Shown one piece after another: positions 5,022 through 54,714 of a DNA stretch of 64,000 nucleotides. This DNA is from Candidatus Poribacteria bacterium. Lineage in GTDB: Bacteria; Poribacteria; WGA-4E; WGA-3G. Position 1 is the stretch's first letter, and each line of letters starts with the position of its first letter. The DNA is taken from contig OY282386.1 in the NCBI GenBank assembly GCA_958295945.1, positions 2,970,204-3,034,203 of the forward strand, given 5' to 3'. The notes beneath the pieces were generated by a model. That model worked only from the letters and a program-made list of their open reading frames with translations. It did not search any database and was not told the DNA's origin. The translations under genes and the position numbers were made by a program.

Positions 5022-5143
5022 ATTATAAGTTATAATGTGGTTGTAAAACACTTTCTTATACACTATACCAGAATGTCAGTATGCATTGTAAGATCGTATT
5101 TTATTAATATCTGGAATTGTATAGAAACTGATAGGGTATCAAG

Positions 5144-7927
5144 TTGCAGTTTAATACAAAAAGCATCGGACACCTATGTTCTCTCTTTACAGATGGACCA
5201 GATCCAATCTTCTTACTTGGTGCTGGTACTTCCTACAGTTCAGGTATTCCTCTTGCAGGTGAAATGGTTGAAAAAATAGCAAGATGGGGATACTGTAAGG
5301 AAAATAACCTTCCTATTGAAGATCCACGCATACGGCGCAGTGACTGGTATCCTTGGTTAGAAAAACAGAATTGGTATCGAAAGGATTTGGAATCAGCTGA
5401 TAATTTTCCTTTTGCTGTAGAAAATGTACTTCAACCAAGCGAATCAAGAAGGCAATTCTTTGAGGACATTTTAGATACACAAGTGCCAGCGGGTGAAGGA
5501 TATGAGAATATGGTGAAGTTTATGGAACAGAAACTTATTCATACTATTCTTACCACGAACTTTGATTCGGTATTGTTAAACTTGTGTAGAGCGAACCGTC
5601 GACTTCATCATATTGATGTTGTCCAAACACCATCTGATTTTTCCATTATATCAACAAGTTCTCAACGTCCGCAATTAATTTACTTACACGGTTCTGTTCA
5701 ACATTACACTGACAAAAACACCCTTGCCGAAGTAAATGAAGAACTTAATCCAAATCTTGTTGCAAGATTGATCCCGCTTTTGAGAGATCATCCGTTGATT
5801 ATTATAGGATATCGCGGAGCAGAGCCTTCTATAATGAGACATCTTCTCATTGATAACGCTGCGGCTGCAGATGGTTACCGTCATGGGATTTATTGGTGCT
5901 CGCGAAATTATATAGAGGGCGATTCTGATAATTTTCCTTCGTTAGTTCAGGCACTCGCTGGTGAAATCCAAACAAACTTTCAAGTTGTTTCTATTGATGG
6001 ATTTGACGAAGTGATGTGTACTTTATGGCAGCATGTTCATCAGCAGGGCACGGATTATCAGCCGCAAATTCCTTCTGTGTCTGAAGAATTATCATTACTT
6101 CCTTTTGATTTCCAGAAACTTACCGAAGCTGCCTTGGATGATTTTGATTGGCCGACAATGAGAGTTCGGGTGTTTCAGTACTGCGACAGGATAGATATCC
6201 GGGTACCGCCAACTGTCAACGACGATTGGATTATTCGATTGCTGTGCGATTTAGATCTTGCCTCACCTACTGAAGAAGATAATATTTTTCCAACGGTAGG
6301 TGGTTACTTACTTTTTGCTGCGACTCCGCAACACTGTATCCAAACCGCTAAAGTCATCGTACGTATAAATGGGGATCCTGAGTGGATCCAAAGCGTTTTT
6401 GATATTTCTACCAATCAAGTAGAACAAAAAATCGAGGGTAATCTTTGGCATCAACTTGACGAGATTTATGTGCTGCTTTCTCACATTAACCGATCATTCC
6501 TCCTAAAGGGTGGACAACACTCAAAATCTGTGTATCCCTATCCCCCAGATGCTTTGCGAGAAATAGTTGTTAACGCACTTGTACATCGGGACTATGAAAA
6601 GAATGAGCCAATCGTGGTTGAAATTGAGCAAAATTGTATCCGTGTCCGCAATCCAGGCGGGTTAGTTCAAGACGTTATAGAGCAGATGACGGCCACACCT
6701 CATAGCGAGATAAGAGACACGTTTGAAACAAAAATCAAAGGCGGAGCACGGGGCATTCAAGGATATCGGAACCCTGTGGTGTCAGACTTGTTTTATGGAA
6801 CAGCAGATATGGAAAGAGCCGGTTCCGGATTACCGGACGTTTGGCAGAAATGCAATGAAAACAAAAATGAAGTAAATTTTGGACCGAATGATGACAATAC
6901 TGCTTTTGAAATAACAATTTCGCGGCGCCCTGAAGCAGTAGATACAATTACTGGCACTGCCTCCAGCAGTAATCACTTCACCCGCTACGCGAGCAATCTT
7001 CTTGAAGTAGTTAATCTACCAGATGTAGTTTGGCACGCTGGAACTACTGCACGAAGAGCAAAGGATATATGGGAAAGCACAGAAGCAGATTGGCTACCTC
7101 CATTCATGGCTTATGCAGAAAGGCTTTTTACTTTCGAGAATCTTTTGACTTCTGCTAACCCACTTTACACTGCGATTGACACTAACGATATAGGAAAGAT
7201 AACCATTGAAGAATTTATTAACACCTATGATGAGAAGACTTTTGTCTGGCTACTCAATACATGTTTTTTCAGACATCTTGAAGCACAAGGTCTATTGATA
7301 GACAAAGATCGAAAACGTGCTTATTTTCCTAAAACGGATGAAAACTTTCGAAAAATCACCTACAAGGCGCGCGTTCGTCGAGCTACCCGAAAAGTGGTGA
7401 AAAAGGTAAATAATTACTGGGAGCACAAGTCTTTTTGGTTCCGGTTTGAACGCTATGGAAATGTCTGGACCCTACTCTTACTTCCAAGTTATGTTTTTAC
7501 TACTGATGGAAAAGCATCGTACTTGCCTGGTGATTTGACCAATAAATATTCCACACGACTTCAGAGTCACGATTATAACAATGTGGTGCACAACGATCTT
7601 GTATTTTGGGCGTGGGTGCTTTCAGGCGGAAAACATGGCACTTTTGCGCTAAACACAGGTGCCCCAGATATAAAATCAAATACGGTTTCAGGAAACAGAA
7701 TCCATAAAGGCAACGGTCATCAAATCCTTATTAGAAATAACTTGTCAGCGGTTGTTGCTCCTGTGATGGACTTAGATGAAGCATGGGGAATTGGAGAAAT
7801 TGAGAAATTGGATACAAGCGAATTGGCACAGTTAGAGTCAGAAATCTCACAGACGATTTCGCAATTAGCAGAGGAAGAAGATGTTAATTCAAATGGAAAT
7901 CAATCAATTACCTACGCCAGAGATTGA
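5144..7927 (+). CDS. SIR2 - RecG-like GHKL ATPase - APAZ fusion, partner of short Argonaute
   Basis: This 927-residue protein appears to have three parts. Residues about 20-300 are a SIR2 NAD-hydrolase-type domain: LLGAGTS at 24-30, TTNFD at 137-141 and YLHGS at 180-184, which supply the expected Asn and His. Residues about 330-600 resemble the C-terminal region of COG2865-type regulators (HATPase_c_4): GGYLLFA, then DALREIVVNALVHRDY near 470, NPGGL, and ERAGSGL. Residues about 640-900 look like APAZ, the domain that binds short Argonautes, including YFP and VWTLLLLPSYVFTTDG near 775-790. The start is TTG at 5144; it is needed because the SIR2 glycine motif precedes the first internal ATG. 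The gene overlaps the Argonaute gene by 47 bp. By analogy with SPARSA systems, guide-directed recognition of invader DNA would switch on NAD depletion. Confidence 0.82.
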   Translation: MQFNTKSIGHLCSLFTDGPDPIFLLGAGTSYSSGIPLAGEMVEKIARWGYCKENNLPIEDPRIRRSDWYPWLEKQNWYRKDLESADNFPFAVENVLQPSESRRQFFEDILDTQVPAGEGYENMVKFMEQKLIHTILTTNFDSVLLNLCRANRRLHHIDVVQTPSDFSIISTSSQRPQLIYLHGSVQHYTDKNTLAEVNEELNPNLVARLIPLLRDHPLIIIGYRGAEPSIMRHLLIDNAAAADGYRHGIYWCSRNYIEGDSDNFPSLVQALAGEIQTNFQVVSIDGFDEVMCTLWQHVHQQGTDYQPQIPSVSEELSLLPFDFQKLTEAALDDFDWPTMRVRVFQYCDRIDIRVPPTVNDDWIIRLLCDLDLASPTEEDNIFPTVGGYLLFAATPQHCIQTAKVIVRINGDPEWIQSVFDISTNQVEQKIEGNLWHQLDEIYVLLSHINRSFLLKGGQHSKSVYPYPPDALREIVVNALVHRDYEKNEPIVVEIEQNCIRVRNPGGLVQDVIEQMTATPHSEIRDTFETKIKGGARGIQGYRNPVVSDLFYGTADMERAGSGLPDVWQKCNENKNEVNFGPNDDNTAFEITISRRPEAVDTITGTASSSNHFTRYASNLLEVVNLPDVVWHAGTTARRAKDIWESTEADWLPPFMAYAERLFTFENLLTSANPLYTAIDTNDIGKITIEEFINTYDEKTFVWLLNTCFFRHLEAQGLLIDKDRKRAYFPKTDENFRKITYKARVRRATRKVVKKVNNYWEHKSFWFRFERYGNVWTLLLLPSYVFTTDGKASYLPGDLTNKYSTRLQSHDYNNVVHNDLVFWAWVLSGGKHGTFALNTGAPDIKSNTVSGNRIHKGNGHQILIRNNLSAVVAPVMDLDEAWGIGEIEKLDTSELAQLESEISQTISQLAEEEDVNSNGNQSITYARD

Positions 7928-9365
7928 ATTTGGTGCCCCAGGTACATTTATAGATCCAAAAGTAGGTTTAACTGAAGCTGGTCCTTTTGACCGACGTTTC
8001 GGAGCCGCTCATAAAAGAGAGGTCCGCGTTGGTTTCGTTGGCAATACAGAAATATTAAATAAAGGCTGTAAATGGATTGAAAGGTGTTGCAAAGTAATTC
8101 CAACCGAGATTAAAGACTCTCCACAATATCAAAATTTTCCTGGTTTTCAAGATATTTTTCACGCTAAACTTGAGTTTAGAAACCAGTGGATAAAAACAAT
8201 TGATAACAAAAAACTTGAAAGAGCATTAGCAATACAGAATTTAAAAAGTCGTTTTGAGGATGTATTGAATCTTTATACCGATGGTATAGATAAGTTAGTC
8301 AATTGCACTGAAACGCGTCCTGACATTGTAATATGTTGTTTGCCTAATGAAGTAGTCCAAACATGTTGGAGCATTTCAAGTAATTTGACTCCTCAGCAAC
8401 TTAAATCCATCAAGAAACGTAAGGCTGAGCGTGAGCGTGGACAACTCCCTTTATTTGAAGATATAGAAGAAACCGAAGAAGACCTGCTTAATCGGAATTT
8501 TAGACGAGTATTGAAAGCACGGACAATGAAATATGAAATGCCAATTCAAATTGGAACTGATAGATTGTTTGAAGATATGGAAACAAGTCAAGAAGCGGCT
8601 ACAAGAGCATGGAACATGAGTGTGGCACTCTATTACAAAGCGGGAGGAATACCGTGGCGTTTTAAGGTAAACGGACCAGAAACTTGCTTTGTCGGTATCA
8701 GTTTTCATCACTTACGAACCCCTTCACAACATCTTGTGTATTCAAGTTTAGCACAAGCATTTTCAAGCCGTGGTGAAGGTTTCGCACTGCGTGGAGAAGC
8801 TATTCCGTGGGATGAAAAACAGGGTAGAAATGTGCACTTAACAGCAGACCAATCAGCTAAACTTGCAAGCCAAATCCTTCAAGAATATAGTGAACAGACA
8901 GGTGGCAATCCACAACGTGTTGTACTACATAAGACATCAAGATTTGACGACTCTGAACAAGAAGGGTTCCGACACGGCTTCCGTGATATTCCCATAGTCG
9001 AATTAATTAACATTATGCCGACACAATTTCGGCTATTAACTTATGGAGCATATCCCCCGAGAAAAGGCACCTTGTGTACGGTCAATAAGGAAGCCACATA
9101 TCTATTCACCACCGGTTACATGCCCGAATGGCGGACATATCCTGGGCCTCACATTCCTGCTCCAGTAAGACTAATGAGTAACGATGATGTTGACATGCAT
9201 CAGGTTGCCTCAGACATATTAGGACTCGCCCGCATGAACTGGAATACGGCAAGCATGAGCAGTTCTCACCCTGTAACCCTATTTTTTTCTCGGCGGGTTG
9301 GAGGTATCATGGCAGAAGTAAAAGATGGTGAAAAACCACATCCATCTTTCCGTTATTATATGTAA
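7881..9365 (+). CDS. short prokaryotic Argonaute (MID-PIWI), predicted catalytically inactive
   Basis: At 494 residues it has the length of a short pAgo, which carries only MID and PIWI domains. The MID region begins near EVRVGFVGNTEIL (about 47-59). PIWI hallmarks follow: YYKAGGIPWRF (251-261), CFVGISF (269-275), RVVLHKTSRF, and the C-terminal ILGLARMNWNTASM with PVTLFFSRRVG. The first catalytic Asp position of slicing Argonautes appears to be Ser in VGISF, and the VLHKTSR segment lacks the second, so target cleavage is not expected. The ATG at 7881 has AGAGGAAG just upstream and overlaps the end of the SIR2 gene, which implies translational coupling. It probably binds guide and target and relays the signal to its SIR2-APAZ partner. 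Confidence 0.88.
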   Translation: MLIQMEINQLPTPEIEFGAPGTFIDPKVGLTEAGPFDRRFGAAHKREVRVGFVGNTEILNKGCKWIERCCKVIPTEIKDSPQYQNFPGFQDIFHAKLEFRNQWIKTIDNKKLERALAIQNLKSRFEDVLNLYTDGIDKLVNCTETRPDIVICCLPNEVVQTCWSISSNLTPQQLKSIKKRKAERERGQLPLFEDIEETEEDLLNRNFRRVLKARTMKYEMPIQIGTDRLFEDMETSQEAATRAWNMSVALYYKAGGIPWRFKVNGPETCFVGISFHHLRTPSQHLVYSSLAQAFSSRGEGFALRGEAIPWDEKQGRNVHLTADQSAKLASQILQEYSEQTGGNPQRVVLHKTSRFDDSEQEGFRHGFRDIPIVELINIMPTQFRLLTYGAYPPRKGTLCTVNKEATYLFTTGYMPEWRTYPGPHIPAPVRLMSNDDVDMHQVASDILGLARMNWNTASMSSSHPVTLFFSRRVGGIMAEVKDGEKPHPSFRYYM

Positions 9366-9429
9366 ATTATTATACAACTAATGATGCTCAAGCGTTTTGA
9401 TTGACAAACAGTGAAATGGCGGAGAAACT

Positions 9430-10302
9430 ATGAAAGAGAAAACACTGCCAAAATTGCTTGTAACTAGAGAAGAAGCAGAAGAGAAAATACAAGAACGGAT
9501 AGATGTTGGGAAAATACTTAGGGAAAAACCTATCGATTCAGATGATGAATATGAGTTAACTGGTAAGGATGCAGTTAATTGGTCAAAGTACAACAGAGAC
9601 CTATTAATCAAATTATCTGGAAGTTCCGCTTTAACAGAGGATTACAGAGACTTCATCTATGAAGATCTTGATCTTAATGATTTTGAGGGTCAGCTTTTTA
9701 TAAACCATATAGAAGACTACGAAGATTATATAAAAAAGAAAATATATAATTATAGAGAATATTTGACTGAGAGTCTGAAGAGTTTGGAAGGAATCCGTGA
9801 CAGACTTGAACTGTTTGAAGAACCAGATCCACCTGAGCAGATCTTCGGTGATAAGATCTTCATCGTACACGGACATAATGAGGGAGCTAAACACAAGATT
9901 GCAAGGTTCATCACAGACTTGGACTTAACCGAAACTATACTTGACGAACAACCAGGCAAAGGGCAAACAATAATTGATAAATTTGAAGAGCATGCAGGCG
10001 AAGCAGGTTTTGCCATTGTTTTGTTGACAGGCGATGATGTCGGCGCACCAAAAGAAAAACTTGACATTTCCGAACCACGAGCACGCCAAAATGTCATTTT
10101 AGAACTCGGTTATTTTTTGTGTGGTTTAGGACGTGAACGTGTTCGTATTCTCTACGAAGAAGGTGTTGAATTACCTACAGATATTTACGGCTTAAGTTAC
10201 GTTCAGATGGATAAGAGTGGCGGATGGAAATTGGAATTGGCTCAAGAGATGGCATCTGTTGGAATACCTGTTGACCTAAACAAACTTGTACAGAAAAAAT
10301 AA
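9430..10302 (+). CDS. TIR-like (Cap12/PycTIR-type) domain protein, first copy
   Basis: The protein has 290 residues. Residues 1-135 are a charged, mostly helical region of unknown function. Residues 138-285 match the TIR-like domain found in CBASS Cap12 and Pycsar TIR effectors (Pfam PF10137 by pattern): GDKIFIVHGHNEGAKHKIARF, LDEQPGKGQT, then IIDKFEEHAG, where E186 is the likely catalytic glutamate. ARQNVILELGYF follows. GGAG lies 5 nt before the ATG. It starts 64 bp after the Argonaute gene on the same strand, so it may be a third operon member or a separate effector. A close paralogue lies at 53857-54714. NAD cleavage is expected from the family but not shown. Confidence 0.82.
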   Translation: MKEKTLPKLLVTREEAEEKIQERIDVGKILREKPIDSDDEYELTGKDAVNWSKYNRDLLIKLSGSSALTEDYRDFIYEDLDLNDFEGQLFINHIEDYEDYIKKKIYNYREYLTESLKSLEGIRDRLELFEEPDPPEQIFGDKIFIVHGHNEGAKHKIARFITDLDLTETILDEQPGKGQTIIDKFEEHAGEAGFAIVLLTGDDVGAPKEKLDISEPRARQNVILELGYFLCGLGRERVRILYEEGVELPTDIYGLSYVQMDKSGGWKLELAQEMASVGIPVDLNKLVQKK

Positions 10303-10462
10303 ATTCATTTTCCCTAACACTACCTGAAAGGAAACTCAATGCCCACATTTGACTTCAAAGGCAAATAATTTGTTTACACATACCATATTACTGTCCCAAA
10401 TATGAATTTCCAGCAGTAATAAAGCGATTTTTCTTAAAGTATTCATACATACTGATAACACT

Positions 10463-53574: not shown

Positions 53575-53856
53575 TTTATATATACCTTATTGTGAAAACC
53601 GAATGTATTAAGTTCTATTATTAAACTAATAATGGGTAATATGAAATTTTTGTTCCATTATAGAATTTTGAGTTTCTTATACAGAACGCACACTGAATAA
53701 TATACCGTGATGTAACTGGCATGATGTAATTAGTGTGTATAAACAAATATAATGGATTCATTATCCAAATCTGAATTGGAGTCATAAACATGGACATGCC
53801 ACATGAATCACACCCTGCTATGGAAGAATTCAAGCGTCCCTATTGACAGAGAAACT

Positions 53857-54714
53857 ATGAAAGAGAAAACACTACCAAAACTGCTTGTAAATAGAGAAGA
53901 AGCAGATAAAAAAATACAAGAACGAATTAAAATGGGACAAAAATTTCGGGATCAACCTATAGATTCAGAGGATGAATATGAATCAGTAGGTAAAGAAGCT
54001 GCCAATTGGTCAACATACAACAAAGATCTTTTAGTCAAATTGTTTGAAAGTTCCGCGATAGCAGAGGATTACGAAAATTATATCTTTGAAAAACTTAGTC
54101 ATGATGATTTTGACAGTCATCTTATTATGAACTATGTAAGAGACTATGAAGGCTATGTCAAATGTAAAATTGATAATTATAGAAGAGATTTGACAGATAG
54201 TCTCAATAGTTTGGAAGGAATCCGAGACAGACTTGAATTGTTTGAAGAATCAAATCCACCTGAGCGTATCTTCGGAGATAAGATCTTCATTGTCCACGGA
54301 CATGATGAAGGAGCTAAACACAAAATCGCAAGGTTTATCGCTGACTTGGACTTAATCGCAACTATACTTGACGAGCTGCCAATCGGACATACAATCATTG
54401 ATAAGTTTGAAGAACATGCAGACGATGCAGGTTTTGCAATTCTCTTGTTGACAGCCGATGATCTTGGCACACCAAAAGATCAAAAAGAAAAACTACAACC
54501 AAGGGCACGTCAAAACGTGATTTTGGAACTTGGATATTTTCTTGCTACGTTAGGTAGGAAAAGAATAGGTGTTCTCTATGAAGAAGGTGTTGAACTACCA
54601 TCAGATATTGAGGGTTTAGAATATATACCACTTGATAATGCGGATGGCTGGAAGATAAAGTTAGCAAAAGGAATGCGCGCCGCAGGTTTCACAGTTGATT
54701 TGAACAAAATTTAG
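53857..54714 (+). CDS. TIR-like (Cap12/PycTIR-type) domain protein, second copy
   Basis: The start at 53857 (MKEKTLPKLLVNREEA) is set by alignment with the first copy at 9430; the longer frame from 53803 adds 18 unrelated residues. The 285-residue protein keeps the same N-terminal helical region and C-terminal TIR-like domain: GDKIFIVHGHDEGAKHKIAR, IIDKFEEHAD with the likely catalytic Glu, and ARQNVILELGYFLATLG. DNA similarity to the first copy is high across the whole gene. It is the third gene of the STAND-HEPN island, or a solo gene behind its own promoter. NAD cleavage is inferred. Confidence 0.82.
   Translation: MKEKTLPKLLVNREEADKKIQERIKMGQKFRDQPIDSEDEYESVGKEAANWSTYNKDLLVKLFESSAIAEDYENYIFEKLSHDDFDSHLIMNYVRDYEGYVKCKIDNYRRDLTDSLNSLEGIRDRLELFEESNPPERIFGDKIFIVHGHDEGAKHKIARFIADLDLIATILDELPIGHTIIDKFEEHADDAGFAILLLTADDLGTPKDQKEKLQPRARQNVILELGYFLATLGRKRIGVLYEEGVELPSDIEGLEYIPLDNADGWKIKLAKGMRAAGFTVDLNKI

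What the first reader, a model, noticed from the sequence alone, without database searches (positions are those of the whole stretch)
5144..9365. Short Argonaute system whose SIR2-APAZ partner carries an extra RecG-like GHKL ATPase region
Seen: SIR2 motifs (LLGAGTS, TTNFD, LHG) at the N-terminus, a COG2865/HATPase_c_4-like block (VVNALVHRDY, NPGGL, AGSGL) in the middle, an APAZ-like end, and an overlapping MID-PIWI gene that lacks slicer residues. Known: short pAgo systems of the SPARSA type pair SIR2-APAZ with an inactive Argonaute and deplete NAD on target recognition. RecG/DHS-like regions have been noted in a minority of APAZ proteins in surveys, as I recall. Inference: an ATP-binding module between effector and Argonaute-binding parts could add an energy-dependent switch to NAD hydrolysis. 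I know of no such three-part protein characterised.
Basis: partly seen in the sequence, partly recalled or inferred. Interest (0 to 1): 0.85.

Follow-up and report, generated by a model that had tools for sequence, protein, structure and literature searches.

The report
Argonaute defence pair with ATPase-like module
A sponge-associated bacterium carries a two-gene immune system in which a DNA-sensing Argonaute is paired with a protein joining a probable NAD-destroying enzyme, an ATPase-like domain and an Argonaute-docking part; the architecture is already in catalogues, but I found no test of what the ATPase-like part does.

Summary
Window 5144-9365 (Candidatus Poribacteria) holds a two-gene short-Argonaute operon. 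Gene 1 (927 aa) is SIR2 (1-305), a COG2865-type GHKL/HATPase_c_4 module (about 318-600) and APAZ (about 615-876). Gene 2 (494 aa) is a MID-PIWI Argonaute without the slicer aspartates. The GHKL module is real: a COG2865 profile matches it with 105 bits, and its own AlphaFold model (pLDDT 89) matches 3lmm (Z 21.5), then histidine-kinase-type Bergerat folds. N-box Glu473/Asn477 is invariant in eight homologues down to 29% identity, and all domains are under purifying selection.

Two corrections. The three-part architecture is already catalogued: PADLOC 'SIR2-Kinase-PNTD1-PNTD2', orthogroup og_40 (2018), and 'double-effector' SIR2 + histidine-kinase APAZ (2023). No functional study was found. The 'SPARSA' label is doubtful: Argonaute and APAZ resemble the nuclease-associated S2-type systems (SPARHA/SPARDA).

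Best reading: guide-directed target recognition drives oligomerisation and NAD+ hydrolysis by SIR2, with the GHKL module as a nucleotide-dependent gate or clamp. The NADase step is well supported by homology; the gate is inference. A downstream TIR gene is a neighbour, not a component.

The parts
5144..7927 (+). Gene 1: SIR2-GHKL-APAZ partner protein, 927 aa, TTG start
   Evidence: ORF; PADLOC PDLC02402 1045 bits over residues 9-912 and PDLC02418 SIR2-Kinase-PNTD1-PNTD2 752 bits; six intact Poribacteria copies (window included) plus two distant lineages
5144..6058 (+). SIR2 NADase domain (residues 1-305), Asn139/His182 equivalent to SPARSA N142/H186
   Evidence: Pfam SIR2_2 E 1.7e-10; alignment to 8in8_B; catalytic residues invariant in 24 homologues; fold Z about 20 to KomC, ThsA and DSR2
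6095..6943 (+). COG2865-type GHKL/HATPase_c_4 module (about residues 318-600), without the AlbA_2 domain usual in COG2865 proteins
   Evidence: HATPase_c_4 E 6e-7; COG2865 HMM without any SGA member 105 bits; AF2 model pLDDT 89; 3lmm Z 21.5 over 240 residues, other listed rows GHKL proteins
6560..6595 (+). N-box: Glu473, Asn477 and VHRDY (residues 473-484)
   Evidence: invariant in eight SGA proteins down to 29% identity; N-A-x-x-HRDY invariant in 39 SGA/COG2865 sequences, which were partly fetched by that motif
6650..6664 (+). G1-box equivalent NPGGL (residues 503-507); Asp of DxGxG is Asn here
6767..6832 (+). RNP motif and G2-box GSGL (residues 542-563)
6986..7771 (+). APAZ domain (about residues 615-876)
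   Evidence: 9om4_A E 3.8e-16; VIA-align Z 20.1, rmsd 3.2, 238 residues; REase-PNTD1-PNTD2 E 6e-34
7881..9365 (+). Gene 2: short Argonaute (MID-PIWI), 494 aa, slicer-inactive
   Evidence: pAgo_I 504 bits; 9om4_B E 7e-74; catalytic Asp positions lost; SGA-Ago clade 98/94
5131..9431 (+). Conserved operon block shared with two congeneric genomes; flanks outside it differ
   Evidence: blastn 87-88% over 5131-9431 in L032 and L033 with both edges at these bases; a remnant in L037 starts at 5131 too

Best explanation
This is a two-gene short-Argonaute immune system. Its Argonaute-APAZ core is of the S2 (nuclease-associated) type, and its effector is a SIR2 NADase joined through a COG2865-type GHKL module. 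Most likely the MID-PIWI/APAZ pair binds a guide and recognises invader nucleic acid; target binding drives oligomerisation of the complex; SIR2 domains are brought into an active assembly and hydrolyse NAD+, giving abortive infection. The GHKL module sits between sensor and effector and most likely acts as a nucleotide-dependent clamp or gate (an ATP-bound, dimerisation-competent state) that licenses or stabilises SIR2 assembly. Shown here: domain content, folds, intact SIR2 dyad, lost slicer residues, intact GHKL N-box and glycine boxes, purifying selection, conserved two-gene unit. Inferred from relatives: guide RNA/target DNA, oligomerisation, NAD+ loss. Inferred only: nucleotide binding and gating.
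For: SIR2 dyad N139/H182 aligns with GsSir2 N142/H186, which are essential for SPARSA NADase. APAZ and Argonaute match solved short-pAgo complexes that oligomerise or form filaments on target binding. GHKL fold by profile (105 bits) and model (pLDDT 89; 3lmm Z 21.5; remaining listed rows are GHKL proteins). E473, N477, HRDY, PGGL, RNP and GxGL are invariant in eight SGA proteins down to 29% identity. dN/dS of the GHKL region is 0.10-0.22, as low as APAZ. The fusion is old: SGA proteins are one clade in both the SIR2 tree (100/100) and the Ago tree (98/94). Relatives lie in defence islands with type III R-M, type ISP R-M or NACHT genes. Precedent: the GHKL domain of the Shedu protein VcSduA is needed for defence (E27A abolishes it) and is proposed to control its nuclease.
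Against: No biochemistry. The Asp of the GHKL G1 box is Asn/Ser here and in the COG2865 proteins compared, so ATP binding is not assured and the nucleotide is unknown. Relative orientation of SIR2, GHKL and APAZ is not resolved: the whole-protein model has pTM 0.40. No complex with the Argonaute could be modelled.
Confidence: 0.55

Rival explanations
1. The GHKL module is a purely structural spacer or dimerisation platform, with no functional nucleotide cycle; the system works as an ordinary SIR2-APAZ/short-Ago NADase.
For: G1-box Asp replaced by Asn/Ser; SPARSA needs no such domain between SIR2 (1-309) and APAZ (331-587).
Against: N-box Glu and Asn, HRDY, PGGL and GxGL are invariant in eight homologues down to 29% identity while surrounding residues vary; dN/dS is as low as in APAZ. 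A spacer would not need pocket residues, although the same residues could be kept for folding.
Confidence: 0.25
2. The GHKL module is a second effector, for example a kinase or ATP-consuming activity, alongside NAD+ depletion ('double effector' as proposed in PMC10810196).
For: Proposed for this architecture in PMC10810196; PADLOC names the model SIR2-Kinase; Foldseek lists histidine-kinase catalytic domains.
Against: Pfam found no HisKA/DHp domain; the module is COG2865-type, whose closest solved relative is 3lmm, not a kinase; its position between effector and APAZ suits a coupling part.
Confidence: 0.1
3. It is a SPARSA (S1-clade) system that gained a GHKL insert between SIR2 and APAZ.
For: SIR2 is alignable to GsSir2 over 280 residues; the AU test does not reject SGA + S1 as one side of a branch for Ago (p 0.20) or SIR2 (p 0.30-0.38).
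Against: Ago: 252 bits to SPARHA against 78 to SPARSA; APAZ: best hits are HNH- and DUF4365-APAZ; in the tree SGA Agos lie on the S2 side, behind a long branch from S1.
Confidence: 0.08
4. It is a three-gene system with the downstream TIR-domain gene (9430-10302) as a second NADase.
For: Same strand, 64 bases after the Argonaute stop; CAP12/Pycsar-type TIR domain E 1e-34.
Against: Absent beside the intact operon in five other Poribacteria, Mesorhizobium and the IMG/VR contig. In L032 and L033 the stretches on both sides of the TIR gene lie about 20 bases apart without it. A 79% identical copy lies at 53849-54618 of the same window.
Confidence: 0.02

Closest known systems
PADLOC Aga models PDLC02402 (SIR2-PNTD1-PNTD2) and PDLC02418 (SIR2-Kinase-PNTD1-PNTD2); 'double-effector' SIR2 + histidine kinase APAZ (PMC10810196); orthogroup og_40, SIR2_1 fused with Schlafen (PMC6299218); S2B 'DHS-like-APAZ' (PMC12205087)
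   Same: Same domain order; PDLC02402 matches end to end (1045 bits), PDLC02418 over 152-914 (752 bits).
   Different: These are catalogue entries without functional data that I could find; the labels 'kinase' and 'Schlafen' are refined here to a COG2865 GHKL module lacking AlbA_2. That og_40 and 'DHS-like-APAZ' are this same protein family is my reading of the text, not tested.
SPARSA (GsSir2-APAZ/GsAgo, PDB 8jl0, 8y80)
   Same: SIR2 at the N-terminus, APAZ at the C-terminus, separate slicer-dead Argonaute; SIR2 dyad equivalent.
   Different: No GHKL module in SPARSA; Argonaute and APAZ are much more distant (78 bits against 252 for SPARHA).
SPARHA (HNH-APAZ/short Ago, PDB 9om4) and SPARDA (DUF4365/DREN-APAZ)
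   Same: Closest Argonaute and APAZ by sequence and fold; SPARDA forms filaments after target binding (PMC12205087) and 9om4 is titled a filament form.
   Different: Their effector is a nuclease; here SIR2 plus GHKL.
COG2865 proteins (AlbA_2 + HATPase_c_4), PDB 3lmm (DIP2311)
   Same: Residues about 318-600 are homologous over the region after AlbA_2.
   Different: AlbA_2 is missing and SIR2 stands in its place; SGA adds a stretch after the G1 box; the C-terminal part is APAZ.
VcSduA (Shedu with N-terminal GHKL ATPase), PMC12137116
   Same: GHKL domain coupled to a defence effector and required for defence; a works-like precedent only.
   Different: Canonical HATPase_c, nuclease effector, no Argonaute; not a family relation.

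Membership tests
Short pAgo system (MID-PIWI Ago + APAZ partner) | Operon of a short MID-PIWI Argonaute with an APAZ protein | tested here: met
Short pAgo system (MID-PIWI Ago + APAZ partner) | PIWI without slicer aspartates | tested here: met
   GID to GIS and RDG to KTS
SIR2-Kinase/GHKL-APAZ subtype (PDLC02402, PDLC02418) | SIR2, GHKL and APAZ in one protein | tested here: met
SPARSA (S1B) | SIR2-APAZ protein with intact Asn-His dyad | tested here: met
   N139 and H182
SPARSA (S1B) | Argonaute belongs to clade S1 | tested here: inconclusive
   Placed on the S2 side of the tree, closest to SPARHA Ago, but AU test p 0.20
SPARSA (S1B) | APAZ follows SIR2 directly through a short linker | tested here: not met
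   A GHKL domain of about 280 residues lies between; the SPARSA linker is residues 309-331
SPARSA (S1B) | NAD+ hydrolysis on target recognition | not testable with these tools
   needs biochemistry
GHKL (Bergerat) ATPase superfamily | Bergerat fold | tested here: met
   AF2 pLDDT 89; 3lmm Z 21.5, CheA P4 Z 8.7 and other GHKL proteins
GHKL (Bergerat) ATPase superfamily | N-box Glu/Asn | tested here: met
   E473 and N477 invariant
GHKL (Bergerat) ATPase superfamily | G1 box DxGxG with adenine-contacting Asp | tested here: not met
   NPGGL/SPGGL, as in the COG2865 proteins compared; the pocket may be non-canonical
GHKL (Bergerat) ATPase superfamily | ATP binding or hydrolysis | not testable with these tools
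   needs biochemistry; so 'GHKL fold' is claimed, 'ATPase' is not
COG2865 (AlbA_2 + HATPase_c_4) | N-terminal AlbA_2 domain | tested here: not met
   No AlbA_2 match; SIR2 in its place: a module of COG2865, not a COG2865 protein

The most novel reading that the evidence does not exclude
A nucleotide-gated Argonaute NADase: target recognition by an S2-type Argonaute/APAZ core is relayed to SIR2 through a GHKL clamp whose nucleotide state sets the threshold for NAD+ destruction. As far as I know this would be the first Argonaute system with an energy-sensing checkpoint between recognition and killing, and a first function for the COG2865 GHKL family.
Probability: 0.35. Interest if true: 0.8.

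Novelty: new member of a known kind. Interest (0 to 1): 0.5.

Why it matters
Short Argonautes are the majority of prokaryotic Argonautes, and their nuclease, TIR and SIR2 forms have structures. The SIR2-GHKL-APAZ form appears to be a catalogued branch without biochemistry. It would show whether an ATPase-type domain can act as a checkpoint before a suicidal NADase fires, and would give the COG2865 HATPase_c_4 family an assayable role. Two residues (E473, N477) and a two-gene operon make the test direct.

Tried and rejected
1) A first AU test on SIR2 seemed to reject common origin with SPARSA SIR2 (p 0.0005). It was an artefact of leaving a SPARSA member (L014) out of the tested set; with it included p is 0.30-0.38, so the origin of the SIR2 domain is unresolved. 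2) The first COG2865 profile (123 bits) contained one SGA protein (L148 is the contig of L082); rebuilt without it the score is 105 bits, which is the number used. 3) The TIR gene as third component: rejected from empty sites and copies elsewhere. 4) The full-length AF2 model did not resolve the middle (pTM 0.40); a separate module model was needed. 5) A single-protein scan of viral contigs found nothing; alignment-based scans found one more lineage, L082. 6) A wider taxonomic survey: PDLC02402 over 387 genomes gave no full-length hit outside Poribacteria; the only outside match, G356, is the APAZ part of a DUF4365 protein. E. coli 16S was used to look for Pseudomonadota centres among the handles, but no close one was in the sample. 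7) Literature: no paper with functional data on this architecture in the open library; most subscription papers and preprints are not covered.
Full report
CHECK. The two overlapping ORFs are at the stated coordinates. Pfam finds SIR2_2 (E 1.7e-10) and HATPase_c_4 (E 6e-7), both above curated cut-offs. PADLOC finds an Argonaute-partner model that fits end to end (PDLC02402, 1045 bits), a model explicitly named SIR2-Kinase-PNTD1-PNTD2 (752 bits), and short-pAgo models for gene 2 (504 bits). The host is Candidatus Poribacteria (titles of the closest relatives' records). Below, 'SGA' means the SIR2-GHKL-APAZ protein and its operon.

SIR2. Residues 22-301 align with GsSir2 of SPARSA. N139 and H182 correspond to N142 and H186, whose alanine mutants lose NADase activity, and are invariant in the 24 SIR2 domains compared. 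The model matches KomC, ThsA and DSR2 with Z of 18-21; SPARSA rows score up to Z 28 but with rmsd above 25, because domain placement differs.

GHKL. A profile built from 41 COG2865 proteins of viral contigs (found by an N-box DNA pattern; no SGA member included) hits the window protein with 105 bits, the Mesorhizobium homologue with 93 and the IMG/VR homologue with 86, and none of the other APAZ proteins. The homology starts near residue 318, after the place where COG2865 proteins carry AlbA_2, so SIR2 stands where AlbA_2 would be. The module modelled alone is confident (pLDDT 89, pTM 0.87). Its structural neighbours are 3lmm (Z 21.5, 240 residues) and then, in the 50 rows listed, GHKL proteins: CheA P4, sensor-kinase CA domains, SpoIIAB, PDK (Z about 8). 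E473, N477, VHRDY, PGGL, RNP and GxGL are invariant in eight SGA proteins down to 29% identity. The G1 Asp is Asn or Ser, as in the COG2865 proteins compared, so nucleotide binding is plausible, not shown.

APAZ AND ARGONAUTE. APAZ residues 615-876 match 9om4_A, the HNH-APAZ of SPARHA (E 4e-16; Z 20.1, rmsd 3.2). The Argonaute is closest to 9om4_B (252 bits), then SPARTA and SPARDA (about 160-175), with SPARSA far behind (78). The slicer aspartates are replaced. In a tree of 33 Argonautes the nine SGA Agos form one clade (98/94) on the S2 side, separated from four SPARSA Agos by a branch of 2.2 changes per site. An AU test cannot exclude grouping with S1 (p 0.20), because the attachment point of the distant S1 branch is uncertain. 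The SIR2 domain is also one clade (100/100), with unresolved outside relations. So the fusion is most simply single and old: it is shared by Poribacteria, a Mesorhizobium plasmid (L019) and an IMG/VR contig whose operon follows a serine recombinase (L082).

CONSERVATION AND CONTEXT. Among 85 Poribacteria genomes, six have an intact pair, one is cut by a contig end, and two hold decayed copies. dN/dS in window comparisons is 0.17-0.26 (SIR2), 0.10-0.22 (GHKL), 0.10-0.30 (APAZ) and 0.07-0.11 (PIWI). The block 5131-9431 is shared with two congeneric genomes with sharp edges and different flanks. Relatives lie next to type III R-M, type ISP R-M or a NACHT protein. Only the two genes are constant. 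The TIR gene sits between two stretches that lie about 20 bases apart in G003 and G004, and it has a 79% identical copy elsewhere in the window.

MECHANISM. Related S2-type complexes assemble on target binding to activate their effector (SPARDA filaments; a SPARHA filament structure, row 4). By analogy target binding here should cluster SIR2 domains and start NAD+ hydrolysis. The GHKL module is placed to control that step. Its superfamily's usual behaviour is nucleotide-dependent dimerisation (established knowledge of MutL, Hsp90 and gyrase). One defence precedent exists: VcSduA needs its GHKL catalytic Glu for defence, and its authors propose that the GHKL domain controls the nuclease. The gate is therefore the leading inference, ahead of a passive spacer and of a second effector.

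KNOWN OR NEW. [quoted passage not shown] No functional study was found in the library. What is added here: the module is a COG2865 GHKL domain with intact N-box and unusual G1 box, without AlbA_2; it is under selection as strong as APAZ; the Argonaute/APAZ core is S2-like; and the system is two genes.

Noticed in passing
window 5144-9365 against L032, L033, L035, L038: The operon is a mosaic of exchanged alleles. Window and G004 share SIR2/linker codons 50-400 (3-9% nt difference) where G003 differs by 17-35%; window and G003 share the Ago N-terminal/MID part (3-11%) where G004 differs by 15-37%; G026 and G081 are almost identical for gene-1 codons 1-750 and then diverge by about 30% up to the PIWI part. 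Suggests modular swapping of effector and guide-binding parts.
   Followed up: partly
window 9430-10302 and 53849-54618: CAP12/Pycsar-type TIR gene (PADLOC PDC-S35) inserted between the Argonaute gene and a remnant of what is a DNA-methylase (type III R-M mod-like) gene in L033 (ATG at 10339, stop after 9 codons); a second copy 79% identical lies at 53849-54618.
   Followed up: partly
L001 (own genome C1:2808124-2811378): Another COG2865-type GHKL protein of the same genome carries an N-terminal DUF4062 domain in place of AlbA_2, and its linker resembles the SGA linker (SLDDLD against ALDDFD): a second case of the GHKL module behind a different N-terminal domain.
   Followed up: no
L037 (G015 C81): Decayed SIR2-GHKL-APAZ remnant starting at the same 5' edge as the intact operon, next to two TIR gene copies.
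   Followed up: no
L082 (IMGVR_UViG_3300048589_001394): A 40%-identical SIR2-GHKL-APAZ + Ago pair downstream of a serine recombinase, so the system probably travels on mobile elements.
   Followed up: partly
L040, L041, L042 (other Poribacteria): Separate DUF4365-type short-Argonaute systems in the same phylum (DUF4365 shown for L041; Ago clade).
   Followed up: no
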